The position numbers were made by a program, and so were the translations under genes. Shown here in pieces: positions 12,016 through 36,734 of a stretch of 36,890 nt of DNA. This DNA is from Bacteroidales bacterium. GTDB taxonomy: Bacteria > Bacteroidota > Bacteroidia > Bacteroidales > UBA932. Position 1 is the stretch's first letter. Every line of letters begins with the position of its first letter. The stretch lies in assembly GCA_017960545.1 (NCBI GenBank), contig JAGCYZ010000032.1:1-36890 (forward strand), written 5' to 3'. Under the pieces are notes generated by a model. It ran no database searches. It had not been told where the DNA came from and saw only the letters and a list, made by a program, of their open reading frames with translations.

Positions 12016-12100
12016 AGACTCAAAGACCCCTGTGGGGGGAAGGACCGACAAAGCAGGCTAAAGCCGAAAAGTCCTTCCCCCCACAGGGGTCTCTGAGTCT
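12016..12100. repeat. Long hairpin H1 with conserved cap (groEL downstream)
   Basis: Arms of 30 bases (12016-12045 and 12071-12100) pair with one mismatch. The 25-base cap between them, read on the minus strand, is TTTTCGGC-TTT-AGCCTGCTTTGTCG, the same motif as at 13393, 18988 and 36691. It sits between convergent groEL and the Ig-like gene and may end transcription both ways, but has no T-tract. Confidence 0.92.
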
Positions 12101-12113
12101 GTAAACGGGCCTT

Positions 12114-12497
12114 TTACTGGACGGTAACCTTGCAGGTGGCCTCGTACCCGCCATCCATTGTCTTTGCCTTGATTATGGCCGTTCCTGGCGCAATGCCGGT
12201 AACTGAACCGATGCACGGATTGTCAGCATAATGAGTGACCGTCGCTATCATTATGCTGGAGGAAGTCCAGTCTATTTCCTTGTTGGTTGCATTGGCCGGC
12301 TGGATGGTTGCATTCAGCAGGAAGTCTTGCGGATAAGAAACAGTTACATCCGTCTTATCCAGGGTTATGCCTGTCACGCTCACTTTAAGGGGCTTAGGCA
12401 CAGGTTGGGGAAAGGGTTTTGGCTTAACCAACTCCCCTTTGCGGCGGAAGACCTTTATCCGCAGAAAATTCACGAATTTTTTAAAAATATCTCTCAT
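12114..12497 (-). CDS. Small Ig-like (BIG2-type) domain protein
   Basis: Protein of 127 residues. A basic N-terminus (RDIFKKFVNFLRIKVFRRKGE) and a proline-rich linker (about 25-36) precede one bacterial Ig-like domain with the usual VTGITLDKTDVTVSYPQDFLLNATIQPANATNKEIDWTSS layout and GIAPGTAIIKAKTMDGGYEATCKVTV close. Such domains normally occur in secreted proteins, yet no signal peptide or lipobox is seen, which is odd. It may be cytoplasmic, or a remnant of a larger surface protein. It has its own promoter (TTTG-N20-TATATTTG). Confidence 0.75.
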   Translation of the reverse strand: MRDIFKKFVNFLRIKVFRRKGELVKPKPFPQPVPKPLKVSVTGITLDKTDVTVSYPQDFLLNATIQPANATNKEIDWTSSSIMIATVTHYADNPCIGSVTGIAPGTAIIKAKTMDGGYEATCKVTVQ

Positions 12498-12578
12498 TCT
12501 GACTTGGTATATAGTTTTAGAACTAGGTTATTGATTCTCGACAACGGTTACTACACAGGTTGCCGGCTCGATTATTTA

Positions 12579-12610
12579 CAAATATAACAACGAGGCTTCC
12601 GTATTGCAAA
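12579..12610 (-). promoter_or_regulatory. Promoter for the Ig-like gene
   Basis: On the minus strand TTTG (12610-12607), 20 bases, TATATTTG (12586-12579). This is a full match to the Bacteroidetes sigma-ABfr consensus. The ATG at 12497 is about 80 bases further on. Confidence 0.75.
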
Positions 12611-12632
12611 ATATTTCTAGACAATGTAATAC

Positions 12633-12660
12633 AAAAAAAGACGGCCGGAAAGGCCGTCCA
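12633..12660 (-). terminator. Intrinsic terminator after tRNA-Val
   Basis: On the minus strand, a 7-bp stem GACGGCC/GGCCGTC (12658-12652 with 12646-12640) is followed by a run of seven T (12639-12633). It lies directly after the tRNA 3' end. Confidence 0.85.
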
Positions 12661-12664
12661 TCGG

Positions 12665-12742
12665 TGGTGGGAGATGAGGGAGTCGAACCCCCGACCCTCT
12701 GCTTGTAAGGCAGACGCTCTAAACCAACTGAGCTAATCTCCC
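12665..12742 (-). tRNA. tRNA-Val (anticodon UAC)
   Basis: A full cloverleaf can be drawn on the minus strand: acceptor GGGAGAT/ATCTCCC, D arm GCTC/GAGC, anticodon stem TCTGC/GCAGA with loop CTTACAA (anticodon TAC), and T stem with loop TTCGACT. The 78 bases include an encoded 3' CCA (12667-12665). It lies between folC and the terminator at 12633-12660. Confidence 0.96.
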
Positions 12743-12799
12743 GTAGGGATTGCAAAGGTAAGGAAAAAATCAGGAGTTGCAAATTTTTTTTGAGTTTTT

Positions 12800-14164
12800 T
12801 CAAACTTCCTGCAGTTTGAGGTAGTCCGCAACCACAAAAGTGCTGCCTCCAATGTATATGAGGGACTGCGGAGTTGCCAAGGCCGAAGCCTTTGACACTG
12901 CGTCAGCGACGCTGTCACAGGCCTGGGCGTTGGGGAGCAGATCCTTCGCTTCGCTCAGGATGACAGAAGCAGGCAGGGCGCGCGGCGTATCCGGGGCGGC
13001 AAAGAAGTACTCCGCCTCCTGCGGCATCAGTGGAAGGATGCCAGCAAAGTCCTTATCGGCCATAACGCCGTAAACTATCAGCAATTTGTCATAGGTGCCG
13101 GAGGCCATCATCTCCCCCAGGCGCGCGAAGTTTCCTTTGAGCGCTGCGGGATTGTGGCCTATGTCCGCGATTGTAAGCGGGCTCCTGCGGACCGCTTCCC
13201 AGCGTCCGCGCAGCCCCGTCATCGCCGCAGCGCGGCACAAGGCGTCCACATTAGGTTCCTCCCCCAGCAAATCCAGCGCGCACAGCACTGTGCGAAGGTT
13301 TTCCGCCTGGCACTCCCCCTGCAGGTCCATCTGCGCCAGCACTTCTTCCAATGGCTCTACTTTGTCTGAAGGAGTACTTGGTTGAAAAGGGCTTTCGGCG
13401 TCAAGCCTGTTGTTATCGCCCTTTTCAACCAGGTGCTCCTTCTGGCAGCACAGATCCTTCGCTTCGCTCAGGATGACAGGGAAATCGGGGGCGAAGAAGA
13501 GAGGGCAGTGGGCCTCCGCGGCGGCGGCTTCGAAGACCGGAGCCGTTTCATCGTCCATCTCCCCCACGACCGCGGGCACCCCGCCCTTGAAGATTCCGGC
13601 CTTCTGGCCGGCGATCAGGGCGCGGGTGTCGCCCAGCAGCGCGCAGTGGTCCAATCCTATGGAGGTGACCACGCACAGCTCAGGCACTATGATATTGGTA
13701 GAATCCAAGAGTCCGCCCAGACCCACTTCAATGACGGCAATGTCAACCTGTTCCCGGTCAAAGTACCAGAAAGCCATCCCGGTAGTGATCTCAAAGAAAG
13801 ACAGTTCCGGCGAATCGAACCTGTCCAGGAACTCCACCACGCTCTCCCTGGGAATCATCTCGTAGCCGCCTTCCTCCACAATCTTTATCCTCTCCCTGAA
13901 ATCCAGCAGATGGGGCGATGTAAAAAGCCCCACGCGGTATCCGTTTCCTGCCAGGGACGCGGCAAGCAAGGAACAGACGGATCCTTTACCGTTTGTTCCG
14001 GCCACGTGGATGCACCTGAGCCGGCTTGAAGGGCTGCCCGCCCTGCGGTCCAGTTCCCTTATCCGGTCAAGCCCCGGCTTGTAGGAATCCGCCGAAAAAC
14101 CTGCCGTCTGCACTGACTGATGGCGCTCAAACAGGTTATTTATTATTTGTTCGTAGTCTGACAT
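12800..14164 (-). CDS. folC: Bifunctional folylpolyglutamate/dihydrofolate synthase with repeat insertions
   Basis: Mur-ligase-like enzyme that joins glutamate to dihydropteroate or folates. P-loop AGTNGKGSVCSLLAASL (about 54-70), the dihydropteroate loop TSPHLLDFRERI, GLGGLLDSTNI and the C-terminal DIGHNPAALKGNF are intact. At 454 residues it is somewhat longer than usual (about 420-430). The extra length maps to dispersed repeats in frame: VILSEAKDL at about 229-238 and again at about 400-409, both from the same 28-base DNA unit, and hairpin H2 coding for about 243-265 (HLVEKGDNNRLDAESPFQP). The insertions fall between conserved motifs, so activity may be kept. Its promoter is divergent from the gene at 14216. 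Confidence 0.93.
   Translation of the reverse strand: MSDYEQIINNLFERHQSVQTAGFSADSYKPGLDRIRELDRRAGSPSSRLRCIHVAGTNGKGSVCSLLAASLAGNGYRVGLFTSPHLLDFRERIKIVEEGGYEMIPRESVVEFLDRFDSPELSFFEITTGMAFWYFDREQVDIAVIEVGLGGLLDSTNIIVPELCVVTSIGLDHCALLGDTRALIAGQKAGIFKGGVPAVVGEMDDETAPVFEAAAAEAHCPLFFAPDFPVILSEAKDLCCQKEHLVEKGDNNRLDAESPFQPSTPSDKVEPLEEVLAQMDLQGECQAENLRTVLCALDLLGEEPNVDALCRAAAMTGLRGRWEAVRRSPLTIADIGHNPAALKGNFARLGEMMASGTYDKLLIVYGVMADKDFAGILPLMPQEAEYFFAAPDTPRALPASVILSEAKDLLPNAQACDSVADAVSKASALATPQSLIYIGGSTFVVADYLKLQEV
12939..12966. repeat. Dispersed repeat copy inside folC (site 2)
   Basis: A 28-base unit, AGATCCTTCGCTTC followed by GCTCAGGATGACAG, is identical to the copy at 13452-13479. On the folC strand it is read as VILSEAKDL, in frame, near the C-terminus. 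Confidence 0.93.
13371..13439. repeat. Long hairpin H2 with conserved cap inside folC
   Basis: Arms of 22 bases (13371-13392 and 13418-13439) pair at 20 of 22 positions. The cap (13393-13417, 25 bases) is TTTCGGC-GTCA-AGCCTGTTGTTATC, the family motif. The whole hairpin lies in the folC coding sequence without breaking the frame. Confidence 0.93.
13452..13479. repeat. Dispersed repeat copy inside folC (site 1)
   Basis: The same 28 bases as at 12939-12966, in the same orientation and same reading phase (VILSEAKDL). It is only 12 bases from hairpin H2, so two different repeat types sit side by side in the gene. Confidence 0.93.
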
Positions 14165-14165
14165 A

Positions 14166-14196
14166 TTTGAAGTGTTTCCAAAAATAGTTAATTTTG
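14166..14196 (+). promoter_or_regulatory. Promoter for the PurL/AIRS-like gene
   Basis: TTTG (14166-14169), 19 bases, TAATTTTG (14189-14196): full consensus. The ATG at 14216 is 19 bases downstream. Confidence 0.8.
14179..14186 (-). promoter_or_regulatory. Possible -7 element for folC
   Basis: TATTTTTG on the minus strand, 14 bases before the folC ATG at 14164. It overlaps the plus-strand promoter at 14166-14196, so the two divergent genes may compete for polymerase. No -33 TTTG at proper spacing. Confidence 0.45.
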
Positions 14197-14215
14197 AAGT
14201 CTTATAGAACGCAAA

Positions 14216-15337
14216 ATGAAGAAATTCTCATCGGCTCTTCTTTCCTCTTACATCATTGACGGGGTCCCCCAGGCTCTTTCTCCAATAGAAATGCTTAACG
14301 ACATTTCCATTGAGAAGCACCCTGTAGAGGACTTCTCCGAGACCATTGCCGATGAAACCACAGACCCCGAGCTCAAGACCTGCGCCGTTGACGCGGAGCA
14401 TATGCACTACTACCTGAACAAGGTGGCAGCCACTTCCCGCAAGGATTTCCCTTTTGCGTTCCCCGCCCAATACACTAAGAGCCTCATCGCCTGCGAACTC
14501 ATCGAGACCCTTTGGAAGGACGGCCATTTCAGGCTCCCGGACCTGGCGCTCACCGCCAAATGGGAGTGGTGCGACGGCGGTCTCGGGCGCTTCGCCGCTC
14601 TCTACTGGTCCTGCGAGGCCGCGGCAGACTTCATAGACGCACTTGGCATACGCCTTCAGAAATACAATGTTTACAAGGCCGATGATTGCCGCCTCAGTTT
14701 AAGCGCCGCAATAGCGGTGAACCAGCCCGAGGCCTTTGACGAACTCACCGACGCCGCATCTGAGGGAGAGCCATTCCTCCAGCGCAAGCTCATCGTGCCG
14801 CAAGGCATTGTCCCTGACGCCGAAAGCTGGCTGATATTCATCCCCTTCGACACCTGCGATTTCCGCCTTGGCGGATCCATTTTCTCCGAGGTTGTAGGAG
14901 GCACCCCCGACCCTGCCCCCGAGACCGGCGACGCAGACTATTTCATGGACTGCTTCGAACTGGTGCGCGAGCTTGCAGAAGACGGCATTCTGCTCAGCGC
15001 CGCAACCGTCCGCGAAGGCGGCTTGCTTGCAGCAATGCGCCGTATGAGCGCGGCCTGCGGCGCCTGCATCAACCTTGCGGACATCAAGAACACCTATCAC
15101 GAGAAAGACTCCATCCGAATCCTCTTTTCCGAGGTTCCCGGAGCACTCATCCAGATAAGGGACATCGACTTTGACTACATAGACGCAGAAATGCTCCTGC
15201 AGGACATAGTTTATTTCCCGCTGGGCCATCCCGACATAAAAAGCAGGGACATTACCGTGCTGGATTCCGGCAAAACTTCAATAGAAGCCATACTGGATTC
15301 GCTTATCCGCAGCCAAAGTTCAGAAGGTGAAGATTAA
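14216..15337 (+). CDS. PurL/AIR synthase-related protein, function unknown
   Basis: Protein of 373 residues without signal peptide or membrane segment. The second half (about 230-340) resembles the C-terminal domain of the PurM/PurL (AIR synthase) superfamily: a D.MDCFELVRELAEDGILLSAATVREGGLLAAMRRMSAACG stretch like PurL's substrate-dependent DGGL region, then SIRILFSEVPGALIQI like the family's LFSE.PGR strand. The N-terminal half, with LTAKWEWCDGGLGRF, may be the matching AIRS N-domain but is too divergent to be sure. ATP-binding residues of PurL cannot be confirmed, so enzymatic activity is doubtful; a PurL-derived paralogue is the best guess. It has a full consensus promoter and lies 63 bases before the pyruvate phosphate dikinase gene. 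Confidence 0.55.
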   Translation: MKKFSSALLSSYIIDGVPQALSPIEMLNDISIEKHPVEDFSETIADETTDPELKTCAVDAEHMHYYLNKVAATSRKDFPFAFPAQYTKSLIACELIETLWKDGHFRLPDLALTAKWEWCDGGLGRFAALYWSCEAAADFIDALGIRLQKYNVYKADDCRLSLSAAIAVNQPEAFDELTDAASEGEPFLQRKLIVPQGIVPDAESWLIFIPFDTCDFRLGGSIFSEVVGGTPDPAPETGDADYFMDCFELVRELAEDGILLSAATVREGGLLAAMRRMSAACGACINLADIKNTYHEKDSIRILFSEVPGALIQIRDIDFDYIDAEMLLQDIVYFPLGHPDIKSRDITVLDSGKTSIEAILDSLIRSQSSEGED

Positions 15338-15400
15338 AGTGCTGTTTAATAGAATATTTTTAGTAAATTCGCAAGTTTAATTACAAGGCTATATAAAAAT

Positions 15401-18121
15401 ATGTTTGAAAGGAAAAAAAGAGTTTACCGTTTTGGCGGAAAGACCGCAGAGGGTGACGGTAAAATGAGGGAGCTCCTTGGTGGAAAAGGAGCCAATTTGG
15501 CAGAAATGAGCAAGCTTGGCTTGCCGGTACCTGCAGGTTTTACAATTACAACTGAATGCTGCGCAGAATACTACGCTCTGGGCGGCTCATATACAGAGGA
15601 GCTCAAGGGAGAGGTTGCTGCCGCCCTTGAAGCCACCGAGGCCCTTATGGGCGCAAAATTCGGGGACAAGAAGAACCCGCTGCTGGTAAGCTGCCGTTCA
15701 GGCGCCCGCAGCTCAATGCCTGGTATGATGGATACCATCCTGAACATCGGACTCTGCTCCGACACCATCCCCGGAATGATAGAGAAAACAGGCAACCCAC
15801 GTTTCGTTTATGACGCATACAGGCGTCTCATCATGATGTACTCCGACGTTGTAATGGAGAAAGCCGAAGGCATTGAGCCCGAGGACGGCCAGGGCATACG
15901 CCAGCAGCTCGACAAGATGATGGGCGACCTCAAGGATGCAAAAGGATACAAACTTGACACTGAAATCACCGCCGACGAGCTAAAGCAGCTCTGCGAGCTC
16001 TTCAAGAAGAAGGTGAAGGAAGTCCTTGGAGTTGAATTCCCTGACAACGCAAAGGCACAGCTTTGGGGCTCAATTGGTGGAGTATTCAAGTCCTGGAACG
16101 GAAAGAGGGCCATCGCATACCGCAAGATCGAGAAGATTCCCGATGACTGGGGCACAGCAGTGAACGTACAGTCAATGGTATTCGGAAATATGGGCGAGAC
16201 CTCCGCTACCGGAGTTGCTTTCTCACGCAACCCTGCCATTGGAGACAACAAGTTCTACGGAGAGTGGCTCATCAACGCCCAGGGCGAGGATGTTGTTGCA
16301 GGTATCCGCACCCCCAACCCCCTGAACGAGGCCACCAAGACAGACCATAACAAGAGCCTTGTATCACTTGAGAAGGCTATGCCTGAGGTTTACAAGGAGC
16401 TCGATGACATCCGCATACTTCTGGAAAACCATTTCCACGATATGCAGGACATTGAGTTCACCATCCAGGACGGCAAACTCTATATGCTCCAGTGCCGCAT
16501 TGGCAAGAGGACGGGACTTGCAGCCCTCCAGATGGCTATGGATATGCTTGACGAGGGTATGATTGACGAGCGCACAGCCGTCCTCAGGGTATCCCCCTCC
16601 CAGCTTGACGAGATCCTCCACCCTATCCTTGCACCCGCTTCCGAGAAGAAGGCAAAGGTTATCGCCCACGGACTTCCCGCATCTCCGGGCGGAGCAGTAG
16701 GACAGATCTACTTCACCATCGAGGATGCAATGAAAGAGTACGCAAAGGGCAAGAAGGTGATCCTGGTCCGCGAAGAGACCTCTCCTGAGGATATCGAAGG
16801 AATGAGGGTTGCCGACGGAATCCTCACCACCCGCGGAGGTATGACCTCTCACGCAGCCCTTGTGGCCCGTGGATGGGGCAAGTGCTGTATCGTAGGATGC
16901 GAGGCAATGAAGATTGACTTCGCAAACAAGACCGTAAGCTTTGGCGACGCCAAGTTCAAGGAGGGCGACTGCCTCTCACTGAACGGATCCAAGGGCCTTG
17001 TTTACGGCAGCAAGATTGACACGATGGACGCTTCCGAGAACCCTCTGTTCAAGAAGTTCATGGCCATCGTGGACAAATACCGCCGCCTGGGAATCCGCAC
17101 CAACGCAGACACCCCTGAAGACGCCGCACGCGCGCTTCAGTTTGGCGCAGAAGGCATCGGCCTGTTCCGTATCGAGCATATGTTCTATGGCAAGCACTCT
17201 GAACTTCCTCTCTCCAAGCTTCGCAAGATGATCCTCTGCGACACCGAGAAAGAGCGCAAGGCAGCCCTTACAGAGCTTGAGCCGTTCATCAAGGCTTCCG
17301 TCAAGAGCACAATGAAGATTATGGACGGCAAGCCGGTTGTATTCCGTCTGCTTGACCCGCCTCTGCACGAGTTCGTTCCCAAGAGCAACGACAAGAAGGC
17401 CGAGATTGCAAAGGAACTTGGCGTAACCGTAGAGGAGATCGAGAAGAGAGGCGAGCACCTGCACGAGGTTAACCCTATGATGGGTCACCGCGGAGTTCGT
17501 CTGCACGTTTCCTTCCCTCTCATTGCTGAGACCCAGTACAGGGCCATCTTCACCGCTACTGCAGAACTTATCAACGAGGGTTACAAGCCAATCCCTGAGA
17601 TTATGATCCCTGTTACCATCTCTGCACGTGAGCTCAGCTTCCAGAAGGGAATCTGCGACCGTATCCGCTCAGAGGTTGAAGGCCGCTATATGATGACCAT
17701 CAACTACAAGTTCGGTACAATGATCGAGATCCCTCGCGCAGCCCTTACAGCTAACCGTATGGCCCGCACAGCAGAGTTCTTCAGCTTTGGAACCAACGAC
17801 CTCACCCAGATGACCTTCGGCTTCTCCCGTGACGACGTAGGAACCTTTATGGGCGACTACCTTGGCAACAAGATCCTGGATGCAGATCCGTTCCAGACCA
17901 TTGACACCAAGGGTGTAGGCAAGCTTGTAGAGTACGGTATCCAGGGAGGACGTTCCCAGAGACCTGACCTCAAGTGCGGTATCTGCGGTGAGCACGGCGG
18001 CGATCCTGACTCAATCGAGTTCTTCAACAAGATTGGTCTGGACTACGTTTCCTGCTCTCCTTTCCGCGTACCTATCGCACGCCTTGCCGCCGCACAGGCT
18101 GCAATCCGCCAGAGCGAATAA
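15401..18121 (+). CDS. ppdK: Pyruvate, phosphate dikinase
   Basis: Reversibly converts pyruvate, ATP and phosphate to phosphoenolpyruvate, AMP and diphosphate; in anaerobes it often works in glycolysis. The 906 residues carry the N-terminal ATP-grasp domain (GGKGANLAEMSKLGLPVPAGFT; SCRSGARSSMPGMMDTILN), the phosphohistidine domain with GGMTSHAALVARGWG (His484) and the C-terminal PEP/pyruvate barrel with CGICGEHGGDP (catalytic Cys862). Length is usual. The upstream gap holds TAAATTCG at 15364-15371, a weak match to the -7 consensus. The phosphatase gene follows after 7 bases. Confidence 0.97.
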   Translation: MFERKKRVYRFGGKTAEGDGKMRELLGGKGANLAEMSKLGLPVPAGFTITTECCAEYYALGGSYTEELKGEVAAALEATEALMGAKFGDKKNPLLVSCRSGARSSMPGMMDTILNIGLCSDTIPGMIEKTGNPRFVYDAYRRLIMMYSDVVMEKAEGIEPEDGQGIRQQLDKMMGDLKDAKGYKLDTEITADELKQLCELFKKKVKEVLGVEFPDNAKAQLWGSIGGVFKSWNGKRAIAYRKIEKIPDDWGTAVNVQSMVFGNMGETSATGVAFSRNPAIGDNKFYGEWLINAQGEDVVAGIRTPNPLNEATKTDHNKSLVSLEKAMPEVYKELDDIRILLENHFHDMQDIEFTIQDGKLYMLQCRIGKRTGLAALQMAMDMLDEGMIDERTAVLRVSPSQLDEILHPILAPASEKKAKVIAHGLPASPGGAVGQIYFTIEDAMKEYAKGKKVILVREETSPEDIEGMRVADGILTTRGGMTSHAALVARGWGKCCIVGCEAMKIDFANKTVSFGDAKFKEGDCLSLNGSKGLVYGSKIDTMDASENPLFKKFMAIVDKYRRLGIRTNADTPEDAARALQFGAEGIGLFRIEHMFYGKHSELPLSKLRKMILCDTEKERKAALTELEPFIKASVKSTMKIMDGKPVVFRLLDPPLHEFVPKSNDKKAEIAKELGVTVEEIEKRGEHLHEVNPMMGHRGVRLHVSFPLIAETQYRAIFTATAELINEGYKPIPEIMIPVTISARELSFQKGICDRIRSEVEGRYMMTINYKFGTMIEIPRAALTANRMARTAEFFSFGTNDLTQMTFGFSRDDVGTFMGDYLGNKILDADPFQTIDTKGVGKLVEYGIQGGRSQRPDLKCGICGEHGGDPDSIEFFNKIGLDYVSCSPFRVPIARLAAAQAAIRQSE

Positions 18122-18128
18122 TTGAATT

Positions 18129-18938
18129 ATGTTCAAACACTCTTATACCTTAAACTTAGGCCGCATTACCACCATTTTGGTTGCGGCCTTGTTGGTTGTT
18201 TCCTGCTCTACGGCAAGGAAAGCAACCCAGACCCAGGCTCAGGCCCAGACCCAGGCGGTTGCCGTGCAGCAGGGCTCCTCTTCTTCCACTGCCTATATGT
18301 CAGAGGAAGACCTTCCCGACGCCTCTGTATTCCTTCCGTCTCCCTCCAAGCCCGGAGATCCGCTATTTGAAGGTGACCTGGCGTACTATGCCTGGGGCAA
18401 GAGCGTCCGCGGCACCGAACGCGGCACCCTGGCTCACGATGACGCCAGCAGTTCTCTCTCCTATGTGGCAAAGAGGCTTGAACCGGCCATTGGCTTTCTG
18501 ATCAGTTCAGAAACTACTCCAAACCTTTACCGGCTGCTTTCCAAGTCTTACACCACTACCAACAATGCCAACAAGAAGGCAAAGGACTACTACAACCGCA
18601 AGCGTCCTTACGTTGAGTTCGATGAGCCAACCGGTGTTCCTGAGGGTGAGAGAGGTTCCAGGAACAGCGCTTCTTATCCTTCCGGGCATGCTACCAGGGG
18701 ATGGACCATCGCCCTTGTCCTGTCCGAGCTTCTTCCTGAGTGCAGTGACCAGATTCTCAAGGTGGGTTACGAGTATGGCGAGAGCCGCGTCATTGTTGGC
18801 TATCACTATCAGAGTGACGTTGATGCCGCCCGCATCGCCTCTTCCGCCGCATTTGCCGTCCTTCATTCTAACCCAGAATTCTTACAGGATTTGCAACTCG
18901 CCAAGGATGAGCTCCGCTCTCTTGGTTATCTGAAATAG
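18129..18938 (+). CDS. Class A nonspecific acid phosphatase (PAP2 family) lipoprotein
   Basis: Periplasmic or outer-membrane-bound phosphatase of 269 residues. A signal sequence ends in the lipobox LLVVSC (about 21-26). All three parts of the acid phosphatase signature are present: KDYYNRKRP (K-x6-RP), PSGHATRGW, and SRVIVGYHYQSD (SR-x5-H-x3-D), so it should be active on phosphomonoesters. A Gln/Ala/Thr-rich linker (about 32-50) follows the lipid anchor. It begins 7 bases after ppdK and is probably cotranscribed with it, though no functional link is obvious. Confidence 0.93.
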   Translation: MFKHSYTLNLGRITTILVAALLVVSCSTARKATQTQAQAQTQAVAVQQGSSSSTAYMSEEDLPDASVFLPSPSKPGDPLFEGDLAYYAWGKSVRGTERGTLAHDDASSSLSYVAKRLEPAIGFLISSETTPNLYRLLSKSYTTTNNANKKAKDYYNRKRPYVEFDEPTGVPEGERGSRNSASYPSGHATRGWTIALVLSELLPECSDQILKVGYEYGESRVIVGYHYQSDVDAARIASSAAFAVLHSNPEFLQDLQLAKDELRSLGYLK

Positions 18939-18966
18939 CCATACTGTAGCTCTGGACGCTACGGAT

Positions 18967-19033
18967 CACAGTAAAGGGTTGAAAGTGTAATAACAAGAGG
19001 CTCCGCCCAAATCACTTTCAACCCTTTACTGTG
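18967..19033. repeat. Long hairpin H3 with conserved cap (acid phosphatase downstream)
   Basis: Arms of 21 bases (18967-18987 and 19013-19033) pair perfectly. The 25-base cap, read on the minus strand, is ATTTGGGC-GG-AGCCTCTTGTTATTA, a diverged form of the family motif. It lies between the convergent phosphatase and RAYT genes. Confidence 0.92.
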
Positions 19034-19222
19034 CCTCCTCCGCTACCGTTCTGCACTTTCCAACCCCTGGGTCTTTCACTGAATACTCTGACAGCTCCGC
19101 CGAAAGCATTTTCATTCCCACTACCGCATCCTACCCTCTCCCAACCCTTTTCTGTGTCTCCTCCGCTACCGTTCTGCACTTTCCAACCCCTGGGTCTTTC
19201 ACTGAATACTCTGACAGCTCCG
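19019..19222. repeat. 81-base direct repeat at 123-base offset
   Basis: Bases 19019-19099 recur at 19142-19222 with two differences. The first copy starts inside the right arm of hairpin H3. Between the copies, 19094-19120 has CTCCGCCGAAA then GCATTTTCATTCCC, resembling half of an H-type hairpin (cap edge plus one arm). The open frame through it on the minus strand (repeated VRVFSERPRGWKVQNGSGG) is a repeat artefact. Confidence 0.88.
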
Positions 19223-19234
19223 GGGCGCACTCGT

Positions 19235-20077: not shown

Positions 20078-20098
20078 AGTTCAAGCGGTTATCGGTGC

Positions 20099-20129
20099 CC
20101 AAAATAGAGAATAGTCCCTCAATATCAAA
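20099..20129 (-). promoter_or_regulatory. Possible promoter for the RAYT gene
   Basis: On the minus strand TTTG (20129-20126), 19 bases, TATTTTGG (20106-20099), one off the TAnnTTTG consensus, 21 bases before the start codon. Confidence 0.45.
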
Positions 20130-20171
20130 ATAATAAACGTTTATCTGACGATGCCAGCGGAGGATTGTACG

Positions 20172-20486
20172 CACCGCGACCGAAAAGGGATGATTCTGGG
20201 CGCGGTGGGTTCGTGAGAGATGCACCGCGACACGGATGGGGCAAATCCTGTCGCGGTGCGTGGTGGGAGCGCACACCAGGCCCGCGGAAATGGCCCCGGA
20301 GAGCCATGGGAGACGCATCGCAATGACGCGGTGCGCGAAAAGACTACCCACCGCGACAGGAGAGGGACGATTCAGGGCGCGGTGGGTCTGCACGGGAGGC
20401 ACCGCGACAGGAAAGAGGCGATTCAGGGCGCGGTGTGCTCGTGCGGGAGGGACCGCGACACGGATGGGGCAGATCCTGTCGCGGTG
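20172..20486. repeat. REP-like array of five 36-base hairpins
   Basis: Units at 20172-20207, 20223-20258, 20349-20384, 20400-20435 and 20451-20486 are each 36 bases, open with CACCGCGAC (GACCGCGAC in the last) and close with CGCGGTG. Start-to-start steps are 51, 126, 51 and 51 bases. Units 2 and 5 fold best: 10 bp of outer stem plus GGAT/ATCC (unit 5's outermost base pair is a G/G mismatch). A lone right half (GACGCGGTG) ends at 20333. The array adjoins the 5' side of the RAYT gene. GC content is well above that of the neighbouring genes. Reading frames across it are not credible genes. Confidence 0.9.
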
Positions 20487-20535
20487 CGTGGTGGGAGCGC
20501 ACACCAGGCCCGCGGAAATGGCCCCGGAGAGCCAT
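20224..20535. repeat. 84-base direct repeat extending REP units 2 and 5
   Basis: Bases 20224-20307 and 20452-20535 are identical but for one base. Each holds a REP hairpin plus about 48 bases of shared flank (CGTGGTGGGAGCGCACACC... GGAGAGCCAT), showing recent duplication or conversion within the array. Confidence 0.9.
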
Positions 20536-20554
20536 AGGAGGGGCGCTGGAGGCT

Positions 20555-20720: not shown

Positions 20721-20756
20721 ATAAATAAGGTGACCCGAGGGGGTCACCTTATTTAT
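20721..20756. terminator. Terminator hairpin after the OmpA-family gene
   Basis: A 16-bp perfect inverted repeat (ATAAATAAGGTGACCC, 20721-20736, with 20741-20756) has a 4-base loop. It is A/T-rich at its foot on both sides and lies 20 bases past the stop of the minus-strand OmpA gene. Confidence 0.8.
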
Positions 20757-27822: not shown

Positions 27823-28499
27823 TTCTTTTCTTTCTTATTAGGGTTAGCCTGGGCTTTTTCCTTGTTCACCTTGTCCTGGGTCTCTTTCTCCTTGGCCTGG
27901 ATGGCGTTCAGCATCTGCTGGGCCTGCTGAGGGGATATCTTCTGCTCGCGGGGCGGCTGCTGCTGTTGCTGCTGGTCCTGGTTCTGATCCTGCTGCTGTT
28001 GCTGCTGATCCTGGTTCTGGTCCTGATTCTGATCCTGGTCCTGGTTGTCCTGGCCTCCGCCGTCCTGCTGCTGGTCCTGAAGCTTCTTCTTGGCGTAGAT
28101 GTAATTCTCCTTTGCATCCAGGTCTCCGGGATTGCGCAGGAGGGCCTGCTTGAAGGCCTCGACCGCAGCCTGGTAGTTTTCTGCCTGAAGGGCCACGTCG
28201 CCTGCGTTGTAGAAGTAGTCAGCGGCGTTGGGATGGCTTGGGGCCACGTCCTTTATGGTTTCCAGCGCCTTGGCAGCGCCGGCGTAATCTTCCTGCCTGT
28301 ACAGGGAGGAGGCAAGGTTGTACTGCGCCGCTACGGAAAGCGAATCCTTGAGGGCCGCCTTGCGGTAGTCTATCTCGGCCTGACGGAAGTTGCCCCCGCG
28401 GAACTTGCGGTTGCCTTCCCTCACCTCCCTGCGGTCAACCTGCGCGTTTGCGCATACGGCCAGCAGTGCGGCTGCCAATATCAACAGTATCCTTCTCAT
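27816..28499 (-). CDS. batC: BatC, TPR protein with Gln/Asp-rich tail
   Basis: Protein of 227 residues with a signal peptide (ends AVCANAQ), TPR repeats (about 25-140; GNRKFRGGNFRQAEIDYRKAA, NAGDVALQAENYQAAVEAFKQALLRNPGDLDAKENY) and a low-complexity stretch of Gln, Asp and Asn (about 143-185) before a charged end. It overlaps batD/E by 7 bases and batB by 4. In the Bat system it is an exported partner of BatB and BatA. The DNA of the tail is a simple CTG/CTGRTC-type repeat prone to length change. Confidence 0.9.
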   Translation of the reverse strand: MRRILLILAAALLAVCANAQVDRREVREGNRKFRGGNFRQAEIDYRKAALKDSLSVAAQYNLASSLYRQEDYAGAAKALETIKDVAPSHPNAADYFYNAGDVALQAENYQAAVEAFKQALLRNPGDLDAKENYIYAKKKLQDQQQDGGGQDNQDQDQNQDQNQDQQQQQQDQNQDQQQQQQPPREQKISPQQAQQMLNAIQAKEKETQDKVNKEKAQANPNKKEKNW

Positions 28500-32329: not shown

Positions 32330-33302
32330 TGATCACTTGCTCGATGATGTCTTCGGACTTGACATTTTCTGCCTCCGCCTCGTAGCTGAGGCCGATACGG
32401 TGGCGCAGGACCTCGTTGCAGACGGCCCTGACGTCCTCCGGGATGACGTAGCCGCGCCTCTTGATGAAGGCGTACGCCTTGGCGGCCATGCTCAGCGAGA
32501 TGCTGGCACGCGGCGATGCGCCAAAGGAAATGAGGCCTTTGAGGTTCTTGAGGCCGTATTCCTCCGGAGTGCGGGTTGCGTAAACGATATCCACAATATA
32601 ACGCTCAATCTTCTCATCCATATAAACGTCGCGGACAACCTCGCGCGCCCGGACAATGTCCTGGGGGTTGATTACGGGCTCGGCCTTGGGGAAGGTCCCG
32701 GAATTGTTCATACGGACAATCAGCCTCTCCTCCTCTTTCTTTGGATAGCCCACGATAACCTTGAGCATGAAACGGTCCACCTGGGCCTCGGGCAGAGGAT
32801 AGGTTCCTTCCTGCTCTATAGGGTTCTGGGTGGCCATTACCAGGAAAGGCTCGGGGAGCTTGTAAGTCTTGTCTCCAAGGGTTACCTGGCGCTCCTGCAT
32901 AGCTTCCAGCAGGGCGGACTGGACCTTGGCCGGGGAACGGTTGATTTCATCCGCCAGGACGAAGTTTGCAAAGACGGGACCTTTGTGAACCTCGAAAGCC
33001 TCGTTCTTCTGGGAGTAGATCAGGGTTCCCAGCAGGTCCGCCGGCAGGAGGTCCGGAGTAAACTGGATTCGGCTGAACTTGGCGTTGACCGCCTGGGACA
33101 AAGTATTGATAGCCAGGGTTTTTGCCAAGCCCGGAACGCCCTCCAGGAGGATGTGGCCGTTGGCCAGGAGGCCAATGAGCAGGTTCTCCACCAGATGCTT
33201 CTGGCCCACTATCACCTTTCCCATCTGCATTGTGAGCAGATCCACAAAGGCGCTCTCCCTCTGAATGCGCTCGTTGAGTTCTTGGATGTTGATATTTTCC
33301 AT
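32310..33302 (-). CDS. MoxR-type AAA+ ATPase
   Basis: Chaperone-like ATPase of 330 residues. Walker A is GVPGLAKT, Walker B VLADEINRSPAK, followed by sensor motif ATQNPIEQEGTYPLPEAQVDRF, which marks the MoxR family. It heads the moxR-DUF58-bat operon on the minus strand. No clear TAnnTTTG promoter was seen in the 25 bases to truA, so the operon promoter might lie within truA or be divergent from the consensus. Confidence 0.95.
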   Translation of the reverse strand: MENINIQELNERIQRESAFVDLLTMQMGKVIVGQKHLVENLLIGLLANGHILLEGVPGLAKTLAINTLSQAVNAKFSRIQFTPDLLPADLLGTLIYSQKNEAFEVHKGPVFANFVLADEINRSPAKVQSALLEAMQERQVTLGDKTYKLPEPFLVMATQNPIEQEGTYPLPEAQVDRFMLKVIVGYPKKEEERLIVRMNNSGTFPKAEPVINPQDIVRAREVVRDVYMDEKIERYIVDIVYATRTPEEYGLKNLKGLISFGASPRASISLSMAAKAYAFIKRRGYVIPEDVRAVCNEVLRHRIGLSYEAEAENVKSEDIIEQVINAVIVP

Positions 33303-33320
33303 TATATTTTAATAATTTTG
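33289..33320 (+). promoter_or_regulatory. Promoter for truA
   Basis: TTG (33289-33291), 21 bases, TAATTTTG (33313-33320). The ATG at 33328 follows only 7 bases after the -7 element, so the mRNA would be leaderless or nearly so. Confidence 0.55.
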
Positions 33321-33327
33321 CATTCGT

Positions 33328-34143
33328 ATGCGTTATTCCATAACCCTTTGCTATGACGGCTCGTCCTTTTTCGGCTGGCAGACCCAGCCGGGGGTCCCTA
33401 CCGTCCAGGGCACCCTGGAAGATGCCCTTGGAAAACTGCTCCGCGCTCCAGTGAGCGTTACCGGAGCGGGAAGGACTGACACCGCCGTGAACGCCATAGG
33501 CTACATTGCCCATTTTGACGCCCAGGAGGGCCTGGATACGGAGGCATTGGGCTACAAATTAAATGCCATCCTACCCCCTTCCATAGTGGTTCTGAAGCTG
33601 TCGGAAACCTCTGCGGAATTCCACTCCAGATTTGACGCTACAACCCGCAAATATACATATTTTTTGCATCGTAGAAAAGACCCGTTCGCCGGGCGCTATT
33701 CATTCCAGTGCACATATTCCCTTGACCTGGAAGCAATGGAAAAAGCCGCCTCAATGCTGCTTGGAACCCACGACTTCCGCTGCTTTCAGAAAACCGGCAC
33801 GGACGTAAAGACCTCAATATGCACGGTGACCGAGGCCGGATGGCATTCCTACGCCCCGGTCCACTGCTCTGTGATGGACTTCCCTGCCGGGCAGGGAGAT
33901 TATCTTTATTTCAGGATCTGCGCCGACAGGTTCCTGCGCAACATGGTCCGCGCCGTTGTGGGATCCCTGATTGACGTGGGCCGCGGAAAGATGACCCTTG
34001 AGGACTTTGGCGCACTTATCCTTCCCCCGGATACAAACGGGCGTCCCGGAGACGGACGCCTCCCATCGCGCAGCGATGCGGGCGAGTCCGTTCCGGGACA
34101 CGCGCTGTTCCTTTCCGGGATTACTTACCCTGACCCAGAATAG
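33328..34143 (+). CDS. truA: tRNA pseudouridine synthase A
   Basis: Makes pseudouridine at positions 38-40 of tRNA. The 271 residues begin MRYSITLCYDGSSFFGWQTQPGVPTVQGTLE, with the catalytic Asp in GAGRTDTAVNA and the conserved RNMVRAVVGSLIDVGRGK near residue 205-225. Length is normal. Its last 23 bases overlap the convergent GH97 gene. The region coding for DTNGRPGDGRLPSRSDAGE near the end is slightly longer than in typical TruA. Confidence 0.95.
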   Translation: MRYSITLCYDGSSFFGWQTQPGVPTVQGTLEDALGKLLRAPVSVTGAGRTDTAVNAIGYIAHFDAQEGLDTEALGYKLNAILPPSIVVLKLSETSAEFHSRFDATTRKYTYFLHRRKDPFAGRYSFQCTYSLDLEAMEKAASMLLGTHDFRCFQKTGTDVKTSICTVTEAGWHSYAPVHCSVMDFPAGQGDYLYFRICADRFLRNMVRAVVGSLIDVGRGKMTLEDFGALILPPDTNGRPGDGRLPSRSDAGESVPGHALFLSGITYPDPE

Positions 34144-36115
34144 CAGGATTTATCCAGGAACTTACAACTGCCACTACGGCATCGGCTGTAGCCACGTCGA
34201 TGGCTTTAGCCGGAACCTTTGTGCTGACGGTGGCGTCGTTTCCTCCGGTGTAGAGCACGGTCTGTGAAATGCCCGCGTCTATTCCAAGTTTTTTGTAAAC
34301 GGCATTCAGGTCAAGCTTCACGGGTTTTTCCTGGGTTCCGTTCAGGGAAACTATATACCAGGTGTTGCCTTTGCGGCGTGCCATTGTGACATATTTGCCG
34401 GGATATCCGTCAATGAGGCGGGTTTCGTCCCAGGTTGTGGGCACCTTGCGCATAAAGTCAAGGCAAATCTCGGAAGTGCCGTCGGTAAGGTTGGTGGGTG
34501 AAAGGGCGAAATTCTGTACCGGGTTCTGGTAAACTACCGCCAGGCCAAGCTGGAACACGTCCGTGGTCACCCTGCGGGATCCTCTCTCAGGGTTGCGGTT
34601 CAGGCGCCTCTGAAGGAATGTTCCACCAAATTCCATTGAAGCCACGGTGTTGCGGATGAACGGATGCAGGCAGGCGAATTCCGGCTCCAGGTTGCAGTCG
34701 TTCTGGTTGAACACCATATTCTCCGATGCCCTTACAGCTTCGCTTCCAACAAAGTTGGGATACATCTTCTCCCATCCGCGCGGCAGGGTGGCTCCGTGGA
34801 AGATACACATAAGGCCGTAATCGTTGGCGTCGCTGAGGATGTCCTCGTAGTAGCGCATCGTCTGCTGCTTGTCGCCTCCAAAGAAGTCAACCTTGATTCC
34901 CTTGACGCCGGCTTTCTTCATCCAGGCCATTTCCTTCTTGCGGCTTACCGCCGTGGTGAGGTTGTCCTTGGGGGTTTGCGGGATGTCATTCCACCAACCG
35001 CTGGAGCTGTACCACAGGAACACGTCAACGTTCTTGCTGTTTGCGTACTGGATCAGTTCTTCCATCTTCTCATAGCCAAGGTTCCTGTCCCAATATGCGT
35101 CCACCAGGGTATATTCCCAACCCATTGCTGCGGAGAGGTCTATGTATGCTACCAGGTCGTCCCAGTTGATGCTGGGATCCTGCCAAAGGATCCAGCTCCA
35201 GCTGCTTCGGCCGAACTTATAATCGATGGAAGGCTCGTACAACTGGTCAACTACGTCCCAAGCCACGGTGGTCTCTGCTATTGGAGCCAGGTCTTTGCCA
35301 ACGGTGATGGTTCTCCACGGCGTTGCTCCGGGAACGGAGAAAGCGGCTCCGGCATCGCCCTCGCCATTGTTCTCTTCAGGAAGGGGGAACGCGATGGTGT
35401 AACCCTTCACCGGGTCCCAGTCGCTGAGGTGCGAAGCGCAGTACCGGCTGTCCACGCCGGTCTCGCTTATGAGCACCCACGCTCCCTGGGCCGTCTTGAA
35501 AAGGCACGGGAATGTATATCCGTGGCCGTACTCGGACTTTTCCTCAAGGGGTTTCTCAAGGTAGTAGAACTCCTCGTAACTTGGCTTTGTACGGGCGAAG
35601 CCAATCATTGCATCGCTCTGCGGGGTAAGGAACGAAACCGTTCCGGCAGGCAGCTTGAATGCGGAAACCTCCTCTGATATGCGGATTCCTCCCGGCGCGT
35701 AACCGCGTGTCCTTGGGCGGGGAATGACATACCTGAAAGCAATGTCATTGTCGCTGACCCGGAACTCCACGTCAACGCTGAGGCCCGCCTCGTTCTCAAA
35801 GGTTACTACAGCAACGTTTGCTTTATAGTTCACCTCCGATGCCTTGATTGAAGGAACCTTATACGTCTGGTCCAGCTGGGAATTCTTCACTTCCTGGAAC
35901 CTCAGTACGGAAAAGTCTCCAATATTGGCCTTGAATCCCAACGCAGACGGTTCCAGCACCTGAATCCCGTCATACTCCACGCTGTACTTGGCGTCAGCCG
36001 ATATGTTCACTTTCAGTTTTCCGTCCGGTCCGCTGACCGTTGCCTGGGCGAATGCGCCCACCATTGCCGCCACTGCCAAAACGGCTGTCAGAACGGCTCT
36101 AGATATCTTTCTCAT
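34121..36115 (-). CDS. Glycoside hydrolase family 97 (SusB-like)
   Basis: Exported alpha-glycosidase of 664 residues, signal peptide about 1-23 (ends GAFAQA). The N-terminal beta-sandwich (SPDGKLKVNISADAKYSVEYDG type), the (beta/alpha)8 barrel with WSWILWQDPSINWDDLVAYIDLSAAMGWEYTLVDAYWD, and the GIKVDFFGGDKQ segment are typical of GH97. The Asp in KVDFF is at the place where retaining GH97 members (alpha-galactosidase type) have their nucleophile, so a retaining enzyme is more likely than a strict SusB-type inverting alpha-glucosidase; the substrate is uncertain. No susCD pair is in the window. Confidence 0.92.
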   Translation of the reverse strand: MRKISRAVLTAVLAVAAMVGAFAQATVSGPDGKLKVNISADAKYSVEYDGIQVLEPSALGFKANIGDFSVLRFQEVKNSQLDQTYKVPSIKASEVNYKANVAVVTFENEAGLSVDVEFRVSDNDIAFRYVIPRPRTRGYAPGGIRISEEVSAFKLPAGTVSFLTPQSDAMIGFARTKPSYEEFYYLEKPLEEKSEYGHGYTFPCLFKTAQGAWVLISETGVDSRYCASHLSDWDPVKGYTIAFPLPEENNGEGDAGAAFSVPGATPWRTITVGKDLAPIAETTVAWDVVDQLYEPSIDYKFGRSSWSWILWQDPSINWDDLVAYIDLSAAMGWEYTLVDAYWDRNLGYEKMEELIQYANSKNVDVFLWYSSSGWWNDIPQTPKDNLTTAVSRKKEMAWMKKAGVKGIKVDFFGGDKQQTMRYYEDILSDANDYGLMCIFHGATLPRGWEKMYPNFVGSEAVRASENMVFNQNDCNLEPEFACLHPFIRNTVASMEFGGTFLQRRLNRNPERGSRRVTTDVFQLGLAVVYQNPVQNFALSPTNLTDGTSEICLDFMRKVPTTWDETRLIDGYPGKYVTMARRKGNTWYIVSLNGTQEKPVKLDLNAVYKKLGIDAGISQTVLYTGGNDATVSTKVPAKAIDVATADAVVAVVSSWINPAILGQGK

Positions 36116-36148
36116 TATGGTTAATAGTTTGATTATCCTTTACATCCT

Positions 36149-36178
36149 GCAATATACATCTTTTTTGCCTATTTCAAA
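36149..36178 (-). promoter_or_regulatory. Possible promoter for the GH97 gene
   Basis: On the minus strand TTTG (36178-36175), 18 bases, TATATTGC (36156-36149), two bases off the -7 consensus; 33 bases before the ATG. Confidence 0.4.
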
Positions 36179-36280
36179 ACACCCCTCCCGCGCTCCTTCC
36201 GCTCTCCCCCGTGTGCAAAACACCCCCTTTTTGCTCACGGCCAACTGATTCCAGTCCCAATAGTTGCTGCATCCAAAATA

Positions 36281-36393
36281 GCGGTGGAGTATAAAGTGTT
36301 GATTATCAGGGTAATCAATGATTCAATACCCCCTGATTTCGAAGGTATTAAAAGTATCATTTAGCTGATCCCCAAATAGTTGCGCTCCACCGC
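36281..36393. ncRNA. Candidate structured element with two complementary-loop hairpins
   Basis: Bounded by GCGGTGGAG (36281-36289) and CTCCACCGC (36385-36393). Inside, hairpin A is TTGATTA/TAATCAA (36299-36305 with 36312-36318), loop TCAGGG. Hairpin B is AATACC/GGTATT (36325-36330 with 36344-36349), extended by ATGAT/ATCAT (36318-36322 with 36356-36360; its first base is shared with the end of hairpin A), loop starting CCCTGA. The two loops are exact complements (TCAGGG and CCCTGA), so a kissing or pseudoknot contact is possible. AATAGTTGC occurs at 36259-36267 and 36375-36383. No coding frame; strand not fixed. Confidence 0.5.
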
Positions 36394-36412
36394 CCCTCAA
36401 GAACCTGATCTT

Positions 36413-36635
36413 CACCGCACCCGAAGCAGGACCGGGGCGGAGCGATTAGGCGGTAAATGAAGGTGCAAGGCCCTCCAGCGAACGTGCGTTGCTCCGCACG
36501 ACGGCGTGTGTTTGACGAGTGTTAGACGGGGTTGGGGCCCCGGCTAAAAGGGAGGAGTTAGCCGTCGAGCACGAGAGCGCTGGACTTGCCATTTGCCGCC
36601 GTCAGCGAGGCCCCGGTCCTGCTTCGGGTGCGGTG
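36413..36635. ncRNA. Candidate 223-base multistem RNA or mobile hairpin element
   Basis: A 26-bp perfect outer stem (36413-36438 with 36610-36635; CACCGCACCCG... / ...CGGGTGCGGTG). Inner stems: GGCGGTAAATG/CATTTGCCGCC (36449-36459 with 36590-36600), GCAAG/CTTGC (36465-36469 with 36585-36589), TCCAGCG/CGCTGGA (36474-36480 with 36578-36584), hairpin CGTGCG/CGCACG (36483-36488, 36495-36500), ACGGC/GCCGT (36501-36505, 36561-36565) and TTAG-a-CGGGG/CCCCG-g-CTAA (36522-36547). The nesting is consistent. It shares CACCGC/GCGGTG ends with the REP units. No known RNA family was recognised. Confidence 0.6.
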
Positions 36636-36670
36636 TGGGCAGGCGGGAATGAAGAGAGAGGGGAGGATGC

Positions 36671-36734
36671 GATTCTGGGGATGAAAGTGCTTTCGGCGTC
36701 AAGCCTGCTTTGTGGCACTTTCATCCCCAGAATC
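36671..36734. repeat. Long hairpin H4 with conserved cap
   Basis: Arms of 20 bases (36671-36690 and 36715-36734) pair perfectly, and with one bulged base extend by GGATG/CATCC. The 24-base cap (36691-36714) is TTTCGGC-GTCA-AGCCTGCTTTGTG, identical in its first 17 bases to the cap of H2 in folC. Confidence 0.93.

What the first reader, a model, noticed from the sequence alone, without database searches (positions are those of the whole stretch)
12016..36734. A family of long hairpins with differing arms but one shared 24-25-base cap
Four sites (12016-12100, 13371-13439, 18967-19033, 36671-36734) share a design: 20-30-bp near-perfect inverted arms around a cap of 24 or 25 bases. The caps align as TTT, C or G, GGC, two to four variable bases, AGCCT, G or C, then TTTGT or TTGTTAT. 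The cap has its own small stem (GGC/GCC; GGCT/AGCC in H1), and the middle changes while pairing holds. The arms differ greatly in sequence yet pair at 29/30, 20/22, 21/21 and 20/20. Some arms near the cap share GAAAGTG-like sequence. Ordinary REPs or MITEs keep the stem and vary the loop; this family does the opposite, which suggests that arms are copied from the site (for example by fold-back synthesis primed at the cap) or that the cap is a recognition site needing only a duplex beneath it. I know of no named family with this pattern.
Basis: partly seen in the sequence, partly recalled or inferred. Interest (0 to 1): 0.85.

Follow-up and report, generated by a model that had tools for sequence, protein, structure and literature searches.

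The report
Mobile DNA hairpins sharing one cap
Five related gut bacteria carry dozens of small mobile DNA hairpins whose loop is conserved while the two arms change together, some of them sitting inside working genes, which gives a natural case for studying how paired DNA arms stay matched while their sequence drifts.

Summary
The four hairpins are real and far beyond chance. They belong to a dispersed family: 85 model matches in five related Bacteroidales species, 27 of them in this genome, plus one single copy elsewhere in the genus. The cap is conserved; the arms differ between copies yet pair at 97.7% of cells, and all 20 arm pairs modelled show changes on both sides.

Arms are not made from the insertion site. 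Empty orthologous sites (folC in the sister species; rlmI in nine outgroups) hold neither arm; recent copies share arms; 24 orthologous groups show long inheritance in place. Between sister species arms mostly change in step (14 paired double changes against 7 single), and in two groups the cap is inverted between nearly unchanged arms. Both are published signs of template switching between inverted-repeat arms.

Of 82 sites, 50 lie within 40 nt of a stop codon; some copies lie in frame inside genes, as Rickettsia palindromic elements do. Residual mismatches are mostly G·T on the cap-sense strand (43 against 9 A·C), pointing to one strand that folds. The mobilising enzyme is unknown; the REP-transposase test gave no support. 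I read it as a new variant of the small palindromic mobile elements.

The parts
12016..12100 (-). H1: cap hairpin, arms 30 bp (29/30), 12 nt after the groEL stop codon; cap-sense strand is minus, cap 12046-12070
   Evidence: R1 and R2 matches
13368..13442 (+). H2: cap hairpin, arms 25 bp (23/25), inside the 454-aa Mur-ligase-family (folC-like) ORF, which reads through it in frame on the minus strand; cap 13393-13417
18967..19033 (-). H3: cap hairpin of the second cap type (ATTTGGGC..CTCTTGTTATTA), arms 21/21, 28 nt after the stop of a PAP2-family gene; cap 18988-19012
19095..19131 (-). half copy near H3: one arm and the first part of a cap, no second arm
   Evidence: position checked; 81-nt direct repeats around it
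36659..36744 (+). H4: cap hairpin 36671-36734 (arms 20/20, cap 36691-36714) with the flanks AGGGGAGGATGC / CATCCGGACC shared by a young sub-family
12800..14164 (-). folC-like ORF holding H2 in frame, plus two copies of another repeat read as VILSEAKDL
10381..12003 (+). groEL; H1 lies in its 3' untranslated region
18129..18938 (+). PAP2-family gene just upstream of H3

Best explanation
The hairpins are copies of a small non-coding palindromic mobile element (about 65-110 bp). It consists of a conserved cap with an invariant GGC/GCC mini-stem, on a duplex stem mostly 17-39 bp long. SHOWN: it is dispersed in five related species; recent copies carry their arms with them; the empty sites seen lack both arms; copies lie mostly just after stop codons and sometimes in frame within genes (folC-like, rlmI-like, rluA-like). 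SHOWN: once in place it is inherited for long; its arms mostly change as matched pairs, and the cap can flip between nearly unchanged arms. INFERRED: the arms have no sequence duty beyond pairing, and DNA template switching between the two arms copies changes from one arm to the other and occasionally inverts the spacer. So stems drift and stay paired, while the cap, the only part read by sequence, is conserved. INFERRED, weaker: the form that matters is the folded cap-sense single strand, probably ssDNA recognised by an unknown mobilising enzyme, because leftover mismatches are mostly G-T rather than A-C on that strand.
For: Family: 27 sites in this genome; 26, 12 and 9 matches in G125, G126 and G127 after removing reverse readings; 11 in G001. 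Pairing: 53 dissimilar copies, 20 of 20 arm pairs with changes on both sides, 97.7% of arm cells paired, covariation score 0.859 against 0.186 shuffled and at most 0.169 in slid controls. Whole unit mobile: copies within this genome share 84-93 bp including arms; the same composite sits in the adjacent rlmI and rluA genes of Y. Empty sites: folC in Y and in outgroups; rlmI in 9 outgroups. Inheritance: 24 orthologous groups. Coupled change: 11 X-Y pairs, 274 arm pairs: 252 same, 14 paired double changes, 7 one-sided, 1 other double; about 1.2 doubles expected if the sides were independent. Spacer inversion: X_L081 against Y (25 of 27 arm pairs the same) and G127_L261 against G001_L095 (29 of 30 the same). 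Arm homogenisation plus spacer inversion is the published signature of template switching between inverted repeats (abstract of PMC8604942; abstract and part of the introduction of PMC8794818). Strand asymmetry: G-T 43, A-C 9, p = 2e-6; collapsed by arm cluster 29 against 8, p = 0.0008, and 10 clusters against 1, p = 0.012.
Against: No mobilising gene was found. Y1/REP-type transposase genes occur with and without the hairpins. No target-site duplication or insertion motif could be defined; base composition at the stem foot shows no tag. Selection for pairing with short-lived intermediates could also give double changes. Some orthologous pairs show only one-sided changes (X_L061/G126_L244: 4 one-sided, 0 double; G001_L094/G127_L243: 4 and 0; X_L071/Y_L278: 2 and 0). 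Four of 16 X-Y pairs have strongly different arms at the same place (9-13 of 20-22 pairs the same), which slow coupled drift does not explain and which needs replacement or re-insertion. The G-T excess weakens when related copies are collapsed, and a mutational strand bias could mimic it.
Confidence: 0.62

Rival explanations
1. The hairpins are structured RNA elements of 3' untranslated regions (bidirectional terminators or mRNA stabilisers). The stem is kept by selection on the transcript and the cap binds a protein.
For: 50 of 82 sites lie within 40 nt of a stop codon; 31 of 82 lie between convergent genes, and at 13 of these both stops are within 25 nt of the stem (ORF calls only). Relatives without the family often have ordinary terminator-like hairpins after groEL.
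Against: No T tract follows the stem (T 22% in the 10 nt after it; L083 and Y_L281 end in T5). Copies lie in frame inside three different genes. At 18 sites where neighbouring or host genes read only the anti-cap strand, leftovers are still G-T on the cap-sense strand (8 against 1), as at the 6 sites of opposite orientation (7 against 1). By eye, G001 has an ordinary terminator-like hairpin after its groEL cap hairpin (sequence). No Rfam match in the window or in 7 further loci with copies, apart from tRNAs.
Confidence: 0.2
2. Compensatory evolution by selection alone, without template switching: mispaired intermediates are disfavoured and soon rescued.
For: Same covariation data; one-sided leftovers are mostly wobble-compatible on one strand; some pairs show one-sided changes only.
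Against: In 11 X-Y pairs, paired double changes outnumber one-sided ones 14 to 7, and two runs of double changes lie side by side (X_L058/Y_L241). The cap is inverted between nearly identical arms in two groups, which selection does not produce.
Confidence: 0.3
3. Arms are fold-back copies of one flank made when the cap inserts.
For: Arms of many copies are unrelated to one another and perfect.
Against: Neither arm is present at the empty folC site; copies at different sites carry the same arms; many orthologous arms diverge gradually.
Confidence: 0.05
4. REP elements mobilised in trans by a RAYT (TnpA-REP) transposase of the Y1/HUH type.
For: Small palindromes near gene ends; the strand asymmetry fits strand-specific ssDNA hairpin recognition as described for TnpA-REP (passages of PMC8266576). 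Y1_Tnp genes occur in four of the five species, and one Y1 gene of Y (G125:C35:15115) lies about 1.5 kb from the rluA copy.
Against: None found in G001 (74% complete); Y1 genes also occur in four of six other genus members searched (G004, G011, G017, and G016 below cut-off; not G013, G022), in which R1 found no copy, and in the single-copy species G239. None of 8 Y1 loci (about 1.5 kb each side) holds a cap hairpin with arms; L232, L236 and L353 hold other short palindromes. No GTAG or CGTC tag at the stem foot.
Confidence: 0.12

Closest known systems
Rickettsia palindromic elements (RPE) and Wolbachia palindromic elements
   Same: Palindromic repeats of roughly 84-150 bp, present between genes and in frame inside genes, kept at the same sites in related species; different element types sometimes occupy the same site in different species (passages of PMC10969869 and PMC3767692).
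   Different: Different phylum. That RPE families conserve the stem sequence is my recollection; PMC10969869 says each encodes a conserved peptide. Here only the cap is shared and the stem sequence is free. Sequence relation to RPEs was not tested.
REP/BIME palindromes with RAYT transposases
   Same: Small hairpins near gene ends; strand-specific hairpin recognition (passages of PMC8266576).
   Different: REP stems are 6-13 bp with mostly short loops and a GTAG or CGTC tag (passages of PMC3733652); here stems are mostly 17-39 bp, loops 22-27, no tag, no linked RAYT shown.
Template-switch (quasi-palindrome) correction of inverted repeats
   Same: Arm homogenisation and spacer inversion (abstracts of PMC8604942 and PMC8794818), both patterns seen here.
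   Different: It is a mutational process, not an element; here it would act on a whole dispersed family with a shared spacer.
Coding palindromes in Nematomorpha mitochondria
   Same: Long perfect inverted repeats inside working genes (abstract of PMC6649704).
   Different: There the arms encode conserved protein; here arms and cap are extra peptide absent from outgroups.
Intrinsic terminators
   Same: Hairpin after the stop codon.
   Different: No T tract as a rule, longer stems, conserved 22-27 nt loop.

Membership tests
Rickettsia palindromic element-like (protein-coding palindromic repeats) | palindromic repeat dispersed in many copies between genes | tested here: met
   27 sites in this genome; 85 model matches in five species
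Rickettsia palindromic element-like (protein-coding palindromic repeats) | in-frame insertion in protein genes, absent from outgroup orthologues | tested here: met
   folC-like, rlmI-like, rluA-like
Rickettsia palindromic element-like (protein-coding palindromic repeats) | element sequence, stem included, conserved across a family (recalled) | tested here: not met
   82 sites fall into 21 arm clusters at a loose threshold, one of 45 sites; 20 of 20 arm pairs vary on both sides
REP (GTAG/CGTC) elements | tetranucleotide tag at the foot of the hairpin | tested here: not met
   base counts at the stem foot
REP (GTAG/CGTC) elements | association with a RAYT/Y1 transposase gene | tested here: inconclusive
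   no armed cap hairpin in 8 Y1 loci, though one Y1 gene of Y lies about 1.5 kb from a copy; Y1 genes also in species without copies found, none found in G001
Intrinsic terminator | T tract directly after the stem | tested here: not met
   T 22% in the 10 nt after the stem over 82 sites; L083 and its Y orthologue are exceptions with T5 at the end of the arm
Known RNA family (Rfam 15) | gathering-score match | tested here: not met
   only tRNAs in the window and in 7 other loci with copies
Template-switch-maintained inverted repeats | paired changes in both arms and inversion of the spacer | tested here: met
   single events were not observed directly, and some pairs show one-sided changes only
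MITE of a DNA transposon | target-site duplication and a parent transposon with the same ends | tested here: inconclusive
   no filled/empty pair close enough to define ends

The most novel reading that the evidence does not exclude
An undescribed class of mobile hairpin in which a protein recognises only the unpaired cap on the folded cap-sense single strand. The stem serves merely as a handle, so its sequence is free to be rewritten, arm by arm, by template switching. The element thus renews its stem without losing function, and can also insert in frame into housekeeping genes.
Probability: 0.3. Interest if true: 0.82.

Novelty: new variant of a known kind. Interest (0 to 1): 0.62.

Why it matters
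Repeated hairpins in bacteria are usually grouped by their stems. Here the loop is the constant part, and the stems of orthologous copies can be followed through five related species as they change in step and as their spacer flips. That makes the family a natural data set for measuring template switching between inverted-repeat arms in bacteria; the abstract of PMC8794818 calls the upkeep of paired stems a long-standing dilemma. It also gives Bacteroidales an analogue of the protein-coding palindromic elements of Rickettsia and Wolbachia. The paper searches made here (one search was on template switching) listed no description of this family, but they cover only open-licence papers and I read only the papers named.

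Tried and rejected
Chance: rejected. Arms copied from the target: rejected at folC and rlmI. RAYT/REP mobilisation: no support. Phage spread: two exact cap hits in viral contigs, L056 and L057, have no arms scoring 8 or more, and the second cap type gave no hit. A general habit of the genus with other caps: 400 kb of G016 (20 stretches of 20 kb, of a genome of about 2.4 Mb) held 2 hairpins at score 15 or more, neither of this build; one genome only. Exact insertion ends and target duplications: H3 lies in a stretch of about 1.8 kb absent from Y; Y_L274 and Y_L273 have unalignable or otherwise occupied counterparts in X; no ends defined. Orientation to transcription: same-direction neighbours 12 against 6, nearest 3' end 41 minus against 21 plus; suggestive only. 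G306 and G169 matches are not credible copies: L334 shows no hairpin above the cut and L335 a hairpin with a 5-base loop. R1 was built with the mini-stem one column off; R2 corrects this. In the 101- and 400-genome scans stricter filters and few scored candidates per genome (12) can lose weak or extra copies.

Rows dropped: two spurious palindromes in L080; the script found 82 of the 85 model matches; 5 of 16 X-Y orthologous pairs were left out of the change count: four with strongly different arms (L065/L256, L072/L245, L066-/L262+, L062/L253; nearly all of their changes are double ones) and one with shifted register (L066+/L262-). One search gives all pairs. The 24 groups were put together by hand from the flank matches. 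Matches on one flank only carry: X_L065, G126_L247, G127_L267, both X_L058/Y_L241 pairs, X_L062/Y_L253, X_L064/Y_L268; rearranged neighbours: G001_L088 and X_L075/G126_L254.
Full report
OBSERVATION. With loops of 15-35 bases they are the only hairpins in the window at score 12 or more; 20 random sequences of the same length and neighbour composition never exceeded 12, against 19-27 here. The cap pattern gave 25 matches in this 2.0-Mb, 78%-complete genome and none for the reversed control; 20 of the 25 lie between long arms and the other 5 have arms scoring 5 or less.

THE FAMILY. An alignment of those 20 (A1) gave model R1, which found 27 sites in this genome (28 rows, one the reverse reading of H3) and 11 in one relative, G001, with none in the 99 other genus members sampled. 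A scan of the genome collection (84,980 species by its description) with one cap type gave 77 stretches: 24 had arms scoring 17 or more, one scored 11, 52 scored 4 or less. The 24 lie in four Bacteroidales/Bacteroidia MAGs: RUG10680 (8), RGIG10149 (8, yak rumen by its title), RGIG8042 (5, buffalo rumen), RGIG2877 (3, goat omasum). RGIG10149 appears to be G001: a contig of 49,174 bases and the arms are the same. R1 on the other three genomes gave 26, 12 and 9 matches after removing reverse readings. I call this genome X and RUG10680 Y (G125); RGIG8042 is G126, RGIG2877 G127. A second model, R2, from 53 dissimilar copies, run over 400 genomes of the genus, hit 8: five with many copies (X, G001, and three that by coordinates are G125, G126 and G127), one with a single copy (G239), and two weak matches that are not credible. 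On a groEL tree of 23 genomes X, Y, G001 and G126 form one group with support 1.00; G127 was not in that tree.

ANATOMY. Over 82 sites the loop is 22-27 bases and the arms 17-39 bp (one 13). In A2 the three mini-stem pairs are invariant; the arm helix is paired in 97.7% of cells and all 20 pairs show changes on both sides; over the whole structure 98.0% of cells pair, against 64% on average in shuffles and at most 50% in slid controls. Inner arm positions keep a GAAAGTG-like bias. The cap comes in two main types (TTTCGGC..GCCTGCTTTGTG and ATTTGGGC..GCCTCTTGTTATTA) with a variable mini-loop.

WHERE THEY SIT. By longest-ORF calls, 31 of 82 sites lie between convergent genes, 12 have both neighbours reading the anti-cap strand, 6 both reading the cap strand, 14 lie inside an ORF (some of these ORFs are probably spurious), and the other 19 have a neighbour missing. 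Outside ORFs, 50 sites lie within 40 nt of a stop codon, and 13 of the 31 convergent ones within 25 nt of both. A few lie elsewhere, such as Y_L274 just upstream of a gene. H1 follows groEL. In G001 the same cap in the same orientation follows groEL with arms that agree at only 5 of 28 pairs. Of 24 other groEL loci of the genus and order, 23 could be read; none shows a cap hairpin in the stretch listed (260 nt or to the contig end), and several show ordinary terminator-like hairpins. H2 is read in frame inside a Mur-ligase-family, folC-like ORF; the names folC, rlmI and rluA are my reading of Pfam hits and recalled motifs. Y has two copies in adjacent genes, rlmI-like (Methyltrans_SAM with PUA_3) and rluA-like (PseudoU_synth_2), again in frame.

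EMPTY SITES. Nine outgroup rlmI proteins lack the insert (two have a few other residues there); X and Y have it; G001 has another insert there with at most a decayed cap (R2 E = 0.84). In rluA, Y has the insert, X a damaged form, G001 another insert, and G015 and G012 none. At folC, X, G001 and G126 carry the hairpin; Y has 15 bases in place of 123 (a stretch that also holds a copy of another repeat) and neither arm. So the element came, or went, as one piece with both arms. H3 lies within about 1.8 kb that is absent from Y, where the gene is followed by the terminator that X has at 20721-20756.

INHERITANCE AND CHANGE. Flank matching gave 24 orthologous groups, some resting on one flank (listed under Tried and rejected). 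In 11 X-Y pairs of the same arm family, 274 arm pairs: 252 unchanged, 14 paired double changes, 7 one-sided, 1 other double; if the sides were independent about 1.2 doubles would be expected. Double changes also dominate in most of the more distant pairs, but not in all: X_L061/G126_L244 and G001_L094/G127_L243 each have 4 one-sided changes and no double. The cap is inverted relative to the flanking genes between X_L081 and its orthologues in Y, G001 and G127 (25 of 27 arm pairs the same as in Y), and between G127_L261 and G001_L095 (29 of 30 the same); a third inverted pair (G001_L092/G127_L255) also has different arms. Four of 16 X-Y pairs have strongly different arms at the same place (9-13 of 20-22 pairs the same); some of these hairpins belong to young sub-families with shared flanks (AGGGGAGGATGC/CATCCGGACC; GCGAAGAAGT/CTTCG). 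This means replacement or repeated landing at the same spot.

MECHANISM. Arm homogenisation together with spacer inversion is what template switching between inverted repeats is reported to cause (abstract of PMC8604942), and template switching has been proposed to create and maintain stems (abstract and part of the introduction of PMC8794818). I take this as the likeliest reason that stems drift while staying paired. The cap is then the part under sequence constraint. Residual mismatches are G·T 43, A·C 9, others 11 of 2,104 arm pairs on the cap-sense strand. After collapsing related arms it is 29 against 8, and 10 clusters against 1. At 18 sites where neighbouring or host genes read only the anti-cap strand it is 8 against 1; at the 6 sites of opposite orientation 7 against 1. 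The bias thus follows the cap and not the direction of transcription, which argues against pairing being kept for the sake of the mRNA and for a folded cap-sense strand. I cannot tell ssDNA from an antisense RNA, nor exclude a mutational bias.

MOBILISER. Y1_Tnp (PF01797) genes occur in X, Y, G126 and G127, none found in G001, and also in four of six other genus members searched, where R1 found no hairpins, and in G239. None of eight such loci has a cap hairpin with arms. The one weak match (L348, E = 0.05) is, by position, the extra cap of the rluA insert; that Y1 gene thus lies about 1.5 kb from a copy. Three loci (L232, L236, L353) hold other short palindromes. The two viral contigs with the cap have no long arms.

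COMPARISON AND NOVELTY. The nearest described elements are the Rickettsia palindromic elements, which also insert in frame and persist at the same loci (passages of PMC10969869 and PMC3767692), and REPs (passages of PMC3733652 and PMC8266576). The present family lacks the conserved stem I recall for the first, and the tag and stem size of the second; the RAYT link is not shown. No Rfam family matches in the window or in seven further loci with copies, apart from tRNAs. Paper searches listed no description of it; the library holds only open-licence papers. I rate it a new variant of a known kind.

Noticed in passing
window 12938-12966, 13451-13479, 36749-36777; also in the rlmI and rluA genes of X (L286): A second dispersed repeat (ATCCTTCGCTTCGCTCAGGATGACA) that is read in frame inside genes as VILSEAKDL or SERSEESRSFG, followed in X by short tandem QDDKEP-type units; in X it interrupts the insert of both rlmI and rluA after the same GCCGC.
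   Followed up: partly
Y L271 1600-1720 and 2940-3060; X L286: In the rlmI and rluA inserts a second cap without arms follows the hairpin, and the mini-loop of both caps agrees within one insert (AAA/AAA in rlmI, GGA/GGA in rluA), which looks like local conversion; X rluA seems to have lost one arm by joining the two caps.
   Followed up: partly
82 sites in five species: Species-wise mini-loops: GGA in 14 of 27 X caps, TTT in 10 of 26 Y caps, with 4 of 11 compared orthologous pairs going from GGA in X to TTT in Y, as if caps were homogenised within a species.
   Followed up: no
window 20168-20540: Tandem-like family of about 90-140 bases (CACCGCGACAGG...) inside the stretch around H3 that is absent from Y.
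   Followed up: no
window 9992-10081, 7908-7981: Short tandem arrays TCAGGGTGACAACTATTT (period 18) and CTCAGGGTGACAGGGCAGAA (period 20).
   Followed up: no
L236, L353 beside Y1 transposase genes: Short palindromes with CACCTGG/CCAGGTG-like arms next to Y1_Tnp genes, perhaps this clade's own REP family.
   Followed up: no
G000:C12, about 28140-28277 (L359): Where Y has a cap hairpin after a gene (L273), X has a different long repeat; gene 3' ends may be common landing places for several repeat families.
   Followed up: partly
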